Shown one piece after another: positions 4,609-28,477 of a stretch of DNA of 62,841 nt. Position numbers and translations under genes: made by a program. Within the stretch, counting starts at the first letter, position 1; every line of letters begins with the position of its first letter. Source of the stretch: a virus; IMG/VR virus record IMGVR_UViG_3300035181_001319, positions 1-62,841 of that record, one strand, 5' to 3'. Below the pieces are notes generated by a model. That model was not told the DNA's origin, ran no database searches, and saw only the letters and a program-made list of their open reading frames with translations.

Positions 4609-4649
4609 CGGCCATGACTAAGTGTATCATATCCGAGAAGCTTTGTAAA
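4609..4649 (-). promoter_or_regulatory. sigma70-like promoter, conserved copy A
   Basis: On the minus strand: TTTACA (4649-4644), 17-base spacer, TACACT (4626-4621), then the conserved trailer TTAGTCATGGCC (4620-4609). The same architecture with the same trailer occurs at 11300-11339. It lies directly after the T-run of the 4654-4677 terminator and upstream of the 4588 start. This restarts transcription right behind a terminator. Confidence 0.7.
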
Positions 4650-4653
4650 GCAA

Positions 4654-4677
4654 AAGGCTCCAGAAAACTGGAGCCTT
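4654..4677 (-). terminator. Rho-independent terminator (bidirectional form)
   Basis: Ten-base-pair hairpin AAGGCTCCAG / CTGGAGCCTT with a four-base loop, followed on the minus strand by TTGC and on the plus strand by a short T-run. It ends the transcript of the 4705-5007 gene and sits immediately before the promoter at 4609-4649. Confidence 0.8.
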
Positions 4678-11299: not shown

Positions 11300-11339
11300 G
11301 GCCATGACTAAGTTTAGCATGTTGCTCAAAGCTTGTAAA
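11300..11339 (-). promoter_or_regulatory. sigma70-like promoter, conserved copy B
   Basis: On the minus strand: TTTACA (11339-11334), 17-base spacer, TAAACT (11316-11311), then TTAGTCATGGCC. It is nearly identical in layout to the promoter at 4609-4649, and again begins right behind a terminator. It drives the 10041-11281 gene cluster. Confidence 0.75.
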
Positions 11340-11341
11340 GC

Positions 11342-11366
11342 AAAAAGCCCCGGTTTCCCGGGGCCT
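11342..11366 (-). terminator. Rho-independent terminator of the ncRNA region
   Basis: Hairpin GCCCCGG / CCGGGGC (11347-11353 with 11358-11364), loop of four, followed on the minus strand by TTTTTG. It lies ten bases beyond the CCA end of the tRNA-like element and gives a defined 3' end for a non-coding transcript. Confidence 0.85.
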
Positions 11367-11376
11367 TACGCCTGCT

Positions 11377-11473
11377 TGGAGCAATCCGGGTGGAGTCGAA
11401 CCACCTCCATGTGAGGGCCTGAGACTGTCAGACCATGCCCTCATCACTTCTCCATTACCACTTGGCGGACTGC
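11377..11473 (-). ncRNA. tRNA-like RNA element with encoded CCA end
   Basis: On the minus strand, GCAGTCC (11473-11467) pairs with GGATTGC (11387-11381), followed by a T discriminator and an encoded CCA ending at 11377. A perfect T-arm is present: GGTGG, loop TTCGACT, CCACC (11405-11389). A consensus D-loop, AGTGGTAA, is closed by CCA/TGG. The middle part does not fold into a normal anticodon arm: the best stem is a 7-bp TGAGGGC/GCCCTCA helix with a long loop. One base is also extra or missing at each junction of the acceptor stem. I read it as a tRNA-like structure or a decayed tRNA, not a standard tRNA. Confidence 0.5.
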
Positions 11474-11746
11474 AAACTGGACTTAGGAGACTGCAGGTTT
11501 GCCGAGCTAGGCCCGGAACCAAAGCAGATGGCCATCTTGCTGACTTAAACCATGGCGAGGAGCTACCTCACTTGCACGTCAGAACCTTGGCAACCCGCAG
11601 TCACATAAATCCAGTTGGGGTTCTCTCTCCCCCGTCACCGCCTGTCAGCCGTCAGGCACGCGGTTCAGCCTTTTGCCCTACTGACTGGGCCGCTTGCTAG
11701 TCCGGTGTCACAAGCGGTAGTCCGTTAGTCCCGGACAGGCCCCTCT
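11474..11746 (-). ncRNA. putative structured non-coding RNA upstream of tRNA-like element
   Basis: About 270 bases between the stop of the 11747-12469 gene and the tRNA-like element hold no ORF with a ribosome site. They do contain a series of compact hairpins: GTCCG/CGGAC, CCGCTTG/CAAGCGG (7 bp, near 11688-11717), GCCC/GGGC, GCCTG/CAGGC and GGGG/CCCC. The motif GGACTA recurs three times. The terminator at 11342-11366 follows. I infer one structured RNA of roughly 370 bases, strand from the terminator. It lacks the conserved cores of RNase P RNA and tmRNA. Confidence 0.45.
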
Positions 11747-12469
11747 TCACACCAAGCGTTGGAACGCTGGATATGTCCGATATTCGCCAGTGATGGTCAT
11801 CTTCAGGTTCTCGCCATCACGGTGCCCGTCGAAGTTGGCAGGCATATCCGTGATCATGGCAACCAGAACCTTGCGCACATCATCTTCCGGCCAGCATGAG
11901 CGCAGCTTAGCCGCTTGGTCCGCCCGAACATAGCCGACGTGATGCCAACCCTTATCCTTGTAGTCCCACATCAGCACCATGACGGCGGTGACGTCAGCTT
12001 CATTGGTCGGTTCAGCTACGAGAAGGGCCATGTTGTGCTGTCGCTTGCGGGTCAGAACGTCCTGCGCCTTCTTTGGACGGAAGTGCTGACCGACCAGGTT
12101 GACAATCGTGTGCCCGTCTTTCAGGTCACGATGGTATTCCTGCCTAAAGTCCCAGCCGGCCGAGGTGATGACGTCCGCCGCCACTTCGCCAATGTTAGCC
12201 GGAACGGGCGTATGTTTGGTTTTGGGCCTGGCTTTCAGCATGCTTTGTGTGGGTTCCGCGACCGGCTCTTTGACAAGAGTCTTGAGAACTTCATCCCACG
12301 ACAAACCCATGGACGTACCAAAGCGCATGATTGCGGCGTCCAGTTCGGCAACGGCTTTCTCATGCTTCATGTTTTCCTGCCGCCGCATCTCCTGCACGAC
12401 GGCATTCAGGCCAAACTGGTTCACGACCCGCTCAACAACGACTTCGATCTTTGTTCCCGTAAAGTTCAT
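11747..12469 (-). CDS. hypothetical protein (240 aa)
   Basis: ATG 12469 is preceded by AAGGAGC; the frame extends upstream over another gene's end without a site. The protein has an N-terminal helical region (VVERVVNQFGLNAVVQEM) and a basic linker near 100, then a domain with TIVNLVGQHFRPKKAQ. I see no known family. It lies between the coiled-coil gene and the ncRNA in the replication region. Confidence 0.6.
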   Translation of the reverse strand: MNFTGTKIEVVVERVVNQFGLNAVVQEMRRQENMKHEKAVAELDAAIMRFGTSMGLSWDEVLKTLVKEPVAEPTQSMLKARPKTKHTPVPANIGEVAADVITSAGWDFRQEYHRDLKDGHTIVNLVGQHFRPKKAQDVLTRKRQHNMALLVAEPTNEADVTAVMVLMWDYKDKGWHHVGYVRADQAAKLRSCWPEDDVRKVLVAMITDMPANFDGHRDGENLKMTITGEYRTYPAFQRLV

Positions 12470-12500
12470 CTCTTTGCTCCTTAGATGTTCCTTGATATAA

Positions 12501-12701
12501 CTATGTGCTTTCAGGCTTGGGATCGGTGCCAACACTTTTGGACTTTTCAACCTCGAGCGCCTGCTGAAGCGCAACGTTCAGCTGTTTGGACTCGAAAAGC
12601 TCGATGGCCAACTGTTGAGCCCTTTGCAGCATGACCTGGATCATGGTATTGGCTTCTTGCAGGGCCACCTGCGCGTGAATTGGATTTGGTTGCGTTGTCA
12701 T
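12501..12701 (-). CDS. small coiled-coil protein (66 aa)
   Basis: ATG 12701 follows AGAGGAGC. Almost the whole sequence is predicted helix rich in Gln, Ala and Leu (ALQEANTMIQVMLQRAQQLA), consistent with a coiled coil, ending in a charged tail. The function is unknown. It starts just after the terminator of the DUF2815 gene. Confidence 0.55.
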   Translation of the reverse strand: MTTQPNPIHAQVALQEANTMIQVMLQRAQQLAIELFESKQLNVALQQALEVEKSKSVGTDPKPEST

Positions 12702-28245: not shown

Positions 28246-28314
28246 TCTCCAGTGGCTTGGCATCATCAGTGTGGGGAGAGCCACTCCCGCACAGACTGGC
28301 TTACGCCAGTTTCG
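28246..28314 (-). repeat. 69-bp structured leader element, copy 1
   Basis: As RNA (minus strand) it opens with hairpin ACTGGC-GUAA-GCCAGU, then CUGUGCGGGAGUGG / CUCUCCCCACAC pairings, and ends with CCACUGGAGA, the ribosome site of the 28239 start. It has the same length as copies 2 and 3. The GUAA loop is a GNRA tetraloop. Confidence 0.8.
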
Positions 28315-28315
28315 C

Positions 28316-28477
28316 CTACTGGTTCAAATCAAGGGGACTTTCCACTTTGTGAACCAGACTGGACAGGGTGTCAAGCACCATGTCAAAGTCGGAACTTTTT
28401 GCTGCCAGCTTCATGACAGCTTGCAAGACGGTCAGTTCTTCTTGCGTGAGGTTGAGTTGAAAGGGCTCTTCATACAT
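28316..28477 (-). CDS. small protein (53 aa) behind leader copy 2
   Basis: ATG 28477 follows GGAGAC of leader copy 2. The sequence MYEEPFQLNLTQEELTVLQA is helical and resembles the LTPEECVVLRTL segment of the 28539-28712 product, so the two are probably paralogues. Function unknown. Confidence 0.55.
   Translation of the reverse strand: MYEEPFQLNLTQEELTVLQAVMKLAAKSSDFDMVLDTLSSLVHKVESPLDLNQ

What the first reader, a model, noticed from the sequence alone, without database searches (positions are those of the whole stretch)
11342..11746. About 370-nt structured RNA ending in a tRNA-like domain with CCA
A gene-free stretch rich in hairpins is followed by an element with acceptor-type pairing (7 bp), a perfect T-arm, a consensus D-loop and an encoded CCA, then a strong terminator. 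No proper anticodon arm can be drawn, and the known cores of tmRNA and RNase P RNA are missing. It could be a new phage ncRNA that uses a tRNA mimic for processing or for interaction with tRNA-handling enzymes.
Basis: partly seen in the sequence, partly recalled or inferred. Interest (0 to 1): 0.8.

Follow-up and report, generated by a model that had tools for sequence, protein, structure and literature searches.

The report
Phage tRNA mimic lacking an anticodon
This phage carries, in the genome slot where its relatives keep a ribosome-rescue RNA (tmRNA), a gene for a well-formed tRNA look-alike that cannot read codons, which is either a decaying tRNA or a mimic aimed at the host's tRNA-handling proteins.

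Summary
On the minus strand, 11473-11377 is a 97-nt tRNA-like element. It has an 8-bp acceptor helix (not 7), a perfect T-arm, a consensus D-arm, a U discriminator and an encoded CCA, followed by a strong terminator. None of 300 shuffles of the window gave such a combination. A 10-bp stem with an 18-nt loop replaces the anticodon arm. No standard anticodon arm can be drawn, and ARAGORN calls the element only at 85% of its threshold. Directly upstream, 11475-11618 is a strongly folded rod (z = -5.0). The outermost 128 nt (11619-11746) are no more folded than chance.

The window is a relative of the Rhodobacter phages RcSimone-Hastad and RcRudolph. They, and several metagenomic relatives, hold a circularly permuted tmRNA in this slot; one relative has tmRNA, rod, ordinary tRNA-Pro, terminator. 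No tmRNA was detected in the window.

I read it as a non-decoding tRNA-like RNA, probably cut free by RNase P, rather than as one 370-nt RNA. Whether it is a working mimic or a decaying tRNA cannot be settled, because no homologue was found. New variant of a known kind.

The parts
11377..11473 (-). tRNA-like element (TLS), 97 nt, with encoded CCA
   Evidence: Acceptor 11473-11466/11388-11381 (8 bp), D-arm 11465-11452, T-arm 11405-11389, U73 11380, CCA 11379-11377
11409..11447 (-). Extended arm in place of an anticodon arm: GUG-A-UGAGGGC / 18-nt loop / GCCCUCA-CAU
   Evidence: Fold; 7-bp stem pair probability >=0.97 in TLS alone; a 7-bp helix occurs in 212 of 2000 shuffles of this stretch, so the stem alone is not significant
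11475..11618 (-). Branched rod closed by AACTGGA/TCCAGTT and GACTGC..GCAGTC, abutting the TLS
   Evidence: z = -5.0, 0 of 200 shuffles; inner pairs at probability 1.0
11619..11746 (-). Outer 5' hairpin region after the HIRAN stop codon; no significant excess of structure
   Evidence: z = -0.7, 49 of 200 shuffles as stable; marginal extra pairing with the 3' part (4 of 150 shuffles)
11344..11367 (-). Intrinsic terminator (10 bp) after the CCA
11311..11339 (-). Promoter-like site (TTTACA-17-TAAACT, TG-extended) starting the next unit; the adjoining CTTAGTCATGGCC occurs exactly at 11312-11300 and 4622-4610, both after terminator-like sequence
11747..12574 (-). HIRAN-domain-like gene directly upstream; its homologues precede the tmRNA in RcSimone-Hastad and RcRudolph
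   Evidence: Pfam HIRAN E = 6e-4, below the curated cut-off

Best explanation
The locus is the phage's small-RNA slot at the 3' end of the HIRAN transcription unit. In relatives it holds a permuted tmRNA, in one of them followed by a rod and a tRNA. In this phage it makes a rod and a tRNA-like RNA. Steps shown: anatomy, terminator, synteny with the tmRNA slot, no tmRNA detected in the window. Steps inferred: co-transcription with the HIRAN gene; RNase P cleavage at 11474/11473, freeing a 97-nt L-shaped RNA ending in CCA; exonuclease trimming of the trailer. The product cannot decode because it lacks a usable anticodon loop. It would act, if at all, as a stable tRNA mimic or decoy that occupies tRNA-handling proteins (for example SmpB, EF-Tu, tRNA-cutting defence nucleases). 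The mimic step is the weakest; a tRNA in decay is nearly as likely.
For: The combination of tRNA features was absent from 300 shuffles of the window. ARAGORN calls exactly these 97 nt at 85% of its threshold. Its 3' half matches annotated phage tRNA-Pro genes at 89% over 28 nt, though at a weak E-value of 0.9. TLS helices are predicted at 0.6-1.0 in TLS alone and in rod+TLS. Permuted tmRNA in the same interval of RcSimone-Hastad and RcRudolph by ARAGORN and Rfam, by ARAGORN also in L008, L011, L014, L017, L019, L080; two of these are backed by Rfam. L019 shows tmRNA, rod (z = -6.8), tRNA-Pro, terminator-like hairpin. No tmRNA or tRNA in the window at default settings.
Against: No homologue of the element was found by blastn, DNA patterns or covariance models, so there is no covariation or conservation to show selection. 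The TLS alone is not more stable than shuffles (z = -1.3). In the full 370-nt ensemble the TLS acceptor is not formed. No expression data.
Confidence: 0.48

Rival explanations
1. A phage tRNA gene in decay: an ordinary tRNA (like tRNA-Pro in L019) whose anticodon arm was disrupted by insertion or rearrangement and which no longer has a function.
For: Body and CCA are tRNA-like while the decoding arm is gone. An irregular tRNA-like gene also sits in the tRNA array of phage contig L003. The replaced arm is not more paired than shuffles.
Against: Acceptor, D-loop, T-arm and CCA are all intact, and the acceptor and linker geometry (8 bp, no linker) is itself unusual rather than merely damaged. ARAGORN at its default threshold found no tRNA even after four ordinary arms were substituted; only 2 of 430 in-silico excisions gave a call.
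Confidence: 0.33
2. One ~370-nt structured RNA in which the 5' region pairs with the TLS, as a switch or a closed structure (GGGGC..TCCGGG with CCCGGA..GCTCC).
For: Minimum free energy of 11377-11746 favours this by 4.7 kcal/mol over the TLS fold; coupling energy reached by only 4 of 150 shuffled 5' regions.
Against: Margin is within prediction error and ignores tRNA tertiary contacts; the shuffle result is marginal; shuffled 5' regions also abolish the TLS in 23 of 60 cases; the 5' region is not structured beyond chance.
Confidence: 0.1
3. A divergent tmRNA, or a tag-less tmRNA tRNA-like domain that blocks host trans-translation, as proposed for mycobacteriophage DS6A.
For: The slot holds tmRNA in relatives. 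A TLD-only phage tmRNA exists, and a similar molecule inhibits tmRNA (PMC4131195, PMC11915505). A long helix replaces the anticodon arm, as tmRNA helix P2 does.
Against: No Rfam or ARAGORN tmRNA match even at loose thresholds. U73 and A3-U70 instead of the alanine determinants A73 and G3-U70; a D-stem is present; 8-bp acceptor.
Confidence: 0.06
4. Unremarkable 3' untranslated region with chance resemblance to a tRNA.
For: It lies between a stop codon and a terminator; no homologue was found.
Against: No shuffled sequence met the tRNA criteria in 300 windows; rod z = -5.0.
Confidence: 0.03

Closest known systems
Permuted (two-piece) tmRNA of alphaproteobacterial phages (Rfam RF04321, RF01849)
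   Same: Same genomic slot between the HIRAN gene and the replication genes in relatives; tRNA-like domain with CCA; long helix instead of an anticodon arm.
   Different: Gene not permuted; no tag reading frame found by the tools; U73 and A3-U70 instead of A73 and G3-U70; no model match.
TLD-only tmRNA of mycobacteriophage DS6A (PMC4131195; PMC11915505)
   Same: Phage-encoded tRNA-like domain with neither anticodon nor tag.
   Different: DS6A's is recognised as a tmRNA domain; this one is not. Not compared by sequence here.
Non-canonical tRNAs: tRNA-Sec, selC* tRNA-Cys, allo-tRNA and irregular allo-tRNA-like sequences (PMC7609411)
   Same: 8-bp acceptor, length near that of tRNA-Sec, U73 (also a selC* tRNA-Cys trait); irregular members that E. 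coli synthetases could not charge.
   Different: 8/5 rather than the 8/4 or 9/3 of selC* and allo-tRNA; no anticodon loop; 3-bp D-stem; no long variable arm.
Phage tRNAs that evade tRNA-targeting defences (PMC10264068, PMC11555353)
   Same: Phage-encoded tRNA-like RNA altered in the anticodon region.
   Different: Those are tRNAs with altered anticodon loops or specific decoding tRNAs; this one cannot decode.
Irregular 76-nt tRNA-like element in phage contig L003 (8141-8066, minus)
   Same: 8-bp acceptor + 5-bp T-stem, identical 20-nt T-arm, degenerate anticodon arm; found by the TLS model at E = 3e-4.
   Different: Normal length, sits in a tRNA array; the match rests mainly on the T-arm.
GOLLD and other large ornate phage RNAs
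   Same: Structured phage RNA, some associated with tRNAs (own knowledge).
   Different: Much larger; no Rfam match here.

Membership tests
Canonical tRNA | 7-bp acceptor, two-nt linker, 5-bp anticodon stem with 7-nt loop and U33 | tested here: not met
   8-bp acceptor without linker; no arm with U33
Canonical tRNA | Detected by ARAGORN or Rfam RF00005 at default thresholds | tested here: not met
   ARAGORN only at 85% of threshold
Canonical tRNA | T-arm with TTCRA loop, D-loop GG, 3' CCA | tested here: met
tmRNA (standard or permuted) | Match to tmRNA covariance models or ARAGORN tmRNA search, with tag reading frame | tested here: not met
   No match at E <= 10 or at 50% ARAGORN threshold
tmRNA (standard or permuted) | Alanine identity G3-U70 and A73 | tested here: not met
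   A3-U70 and U73 in the sequence
tmRNA (standard or permuted) | Genomic slot used by relatives' tmRNA (supporting, not defining) | tested here: met
tRNA-Sec / selC* / allo-tRNA | Acceptor stem of 8 or 9 bp (8/5, 8/4 or 9/3 branch) | tested here: met
   8/5; family definitions from PMC7609411
tRNA-Sec / selC* / allo-tRNA | Usable anticodon loop and long variable arm | tested here: not met
   Rfam at E <= 10 lists no tRNA-Sec
GOLLD, RNase P, introns and other Rfam families | Covariance model match at the gathering score | tested here: not met
RNase P substrate | Cleavage at 11474/11473 | not testable with these tools
   Sequence determinants present (U-1, G1-C72, acceptor-T stack, CCA); cleavage needs an assay

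The most novel reading that the evidence does not exclude
A phage replaced its tmRNA with a non-decoding tRNA mimic that titrates a host tRNA-handling factor, such as SmpB of trans-translation or a tRNA-cutting defence nuclease: an RNA inhibitor in a locus where relatives carry a rescue RNA.
Probability: 0.2. Interest if true: 0.7.

Novelty: new variant of a known kind. Interest (0 to 1): 0.42.

Why it matters
If it is a working mimic, it would be a phage RNA without decoding ability that exploits or blocks tRNA-handling proteins, from a locus where relatives carry tmRNA. It would make the question of why phages carry tmRNA and odd tRNA genes directly testable in Rhodobacter capsulatus. If it is a decaying tRNA, it is ordinary phage genome turnover.

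Tried and rejected
Homologues: blastn of the element against phages and plasmids gave none; the TLS alone matched only tRNA-gene 3' halves, weakly. Polymerase neighbours from IMG/VR and GTDB gave kin down to 26% identity; no copy of the element was found in the IMG/VR loci by blastn or in the loci searched by model. Covariance models of TLS and rod found only the L003 tRNA-like element, plus weak hits: the Ruegeria phage Tedan hit lies in an annotated gene. Exact patterns: acceptor 3' strand (no tRNA context) and D-arm (L219 lacks a T-arm, so chance). A 26-nt resemblance to the gap in L026 is marginal. The RcRudolph 295-nt insertion shows no similarity. Intron in a tRNA: ARAGORN intron options gave nothing at default threshold. 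Alternative ARAGORN calls inside the rod (tRNA-Leu, tRNA-Ser at lowered thresholds) overlap each other and have poor stems. The covariance models were built from one sequence, so they carry no covariation. Two polymerase-based scans and one HIRAN-based scan of IMG/VR returned nothing close.

Full report
Observation. The element is on the minus strand between the stop codon of a HIRAN-domain-like gene (11747) and a terminator (11367-11344), which is followed by a promoter-like site for the next genes. Its 3' part, 11473-11377, reads GCAGTCCG / CCA-AGTGGTAA-TGG / AGAA / GTG-A-TGAGGGC-(18 nt)-GCCCTCA-CAT / GGA / GGTGG-TTCGACT-CCACC / CGGATTGC-T-CCA. A scan asking for a 5-bp T-stem, a TTCRA T-loop, a 7-8 bp acceptor, GG in the D-loop and NCCA found it once in the window and not at all in 300 dinucleotide shuffles. 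ARAGORN finds it only when the threshold is lowered to 85%, as an undetermined tRNA of 97 nt. Enumeration of 5-bp/7-nt anticodon arms gives one candidate, without U33.

Structure of the rest. The 144 nt directly upstream (11475-11618) fold far better than shuffles (z = -5.0), while the first 128 nt (11619-11746) do not (z = -0.7) and the TLS alone does not (z = -1.3). In a rod+TLS transcript the TLS helices form at probabilities of 0.6-1.0. In the full 370 nt the acceptor and T-stem drop to zero because the 5' region pairs with the 3' acceptor strand. The energy difference is 4.7 kcal/mol of 160, and the 5'-3' coupling is only marginally beyond chance (4 of 150). I do not build on it.

Context. 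The genome is an IMG/VR virus record. Its DNA polymerase is 74-77% identical to those of Rhodobacter phages RcSimone-Hastad and RcRudolph, which form cluster RcG (PMC9753621). In both, the interval after the HIRAN gene holds a circularly permuted tmRNA with tag ANDNVRMDAQALAA (ARAGORN; Rfam RF04321 and RF01849). ARAGORN finds permuted tmRNAs in the same region, between the ssDNA-binding protein and the polymerase, in L008, L011, L014, L017, L019 and L080; Rfam confirms L008 and L019. L019 is the most telling: permuted tmRNA, a rod (z = -6.8), an ordinary tRNA-Pro, then a terminator-like hairpin. ARAGORN found none in the stretches held of RDJL Phi 1, Tedan, L015 or L016, so presence is patchy. 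In the window no tmRNA was detected.

Mechanism. The tRNA-like part has the sequence determinants RNase P uses (U at -1, G1-C72, continuous acceptor-T stack, CCA; established knowledge). The likely course is co-transcription with the HIRAN gene, RNase P cleavage at 11474/11473, and a free 97-nt L-shaped RNA; this is inferred. That product cannot decode. Two readings remain about equally good: a mimic that occupies tRNA-handling proteins, or a tRNA in decay. Precedents for mimics exist: mycobacteriophage DS6A carries a tmRNA tRNA-like domain only, and such a molecule inhibits tmRNA, perhaps by titrating SmpB (PMC4131195; PMC11915505); phage tRNAs with altered anticodon loops are proposed to evade tRNA-cutting defences (PMC10264068).

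Homology. No copy was found in the phage and plasmid collections, in the IMG/VR loci fetched, or in the full records behind 16 loci. The one relative-like hit is an irregular tRNA-like gene in the tRNA array of contig L003, with the same 8/5 branch and an identical 20-nt T-arm. Because a T-arm is a constrained motif, I treat this as an analogue rather than proven kin. Without homologues there is no covariation test, which caps the confidence. The collections may leave out records very near the window, so absence of close kin is not shown.

Verdict. Real, tRNA-derived or tRNA-mimicking, non-decoding, in a slot where relatives carry tmRNA; probably not a single 370-nt RNA. New variant of a known kind, moderate interest.

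Noticed in passing
L004:5612-6025 (MW677525) and L005:4056-4470 (OP009285): Permuted tmRNA genes (tag ANDNVRMDAQALAA) in RcSimone-Hastad and RcRudolph that do not appear among the annotated features of the records.
   Followed up: partly
L005:4425-4720: RcRudolph has about 295 nt of sequence after the tmRNA tag region that RcSimone-Hastad lacks, with conserved sequence on both sides; not structured beyond chance (z = -1.2).
   Followed up: partly
window 28250-28317 (-): Type II hammerhead ribozyme just above the Rfam gathering score with the GAAAC, GUC and CUGAUGA core intact, upstream of an ATG.
   Followed up: partly
window 4610-4661 and 11300-11351 (-): Two copies of a terminator-promoter junction sharing CTTTACAA...ACTTAGTCATGGCC, 79% identical over 52 nt; possibly a phage-specific promoter and operator. 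RcSimone-Hastad and RcRudolph show GGCCATGGCC at the corresponding place.
   Followed up: partly
L003:8066-8141 (-): Irregular 76-nt tRNA-like gene with 8/5 acceptor-T branch inside a phage tRNA array that also holds a permuted tmRNA; ARAGORN misses it at default threshold.
   Followed up: partly
L017:3945-4262 and L019:4024-4137: Strongly folded stretches directly after the tmRNA in two relatives (z = -3.3 and -6.8), without sequence similarity to the window's rod.
   Followed up: partly
L078:9831-9897 and L048:1619-1702: Two further tRNA-like elements with CCA that ARAGORN does not call, in contigs with a distantly related polymerase.
   Followed up: no
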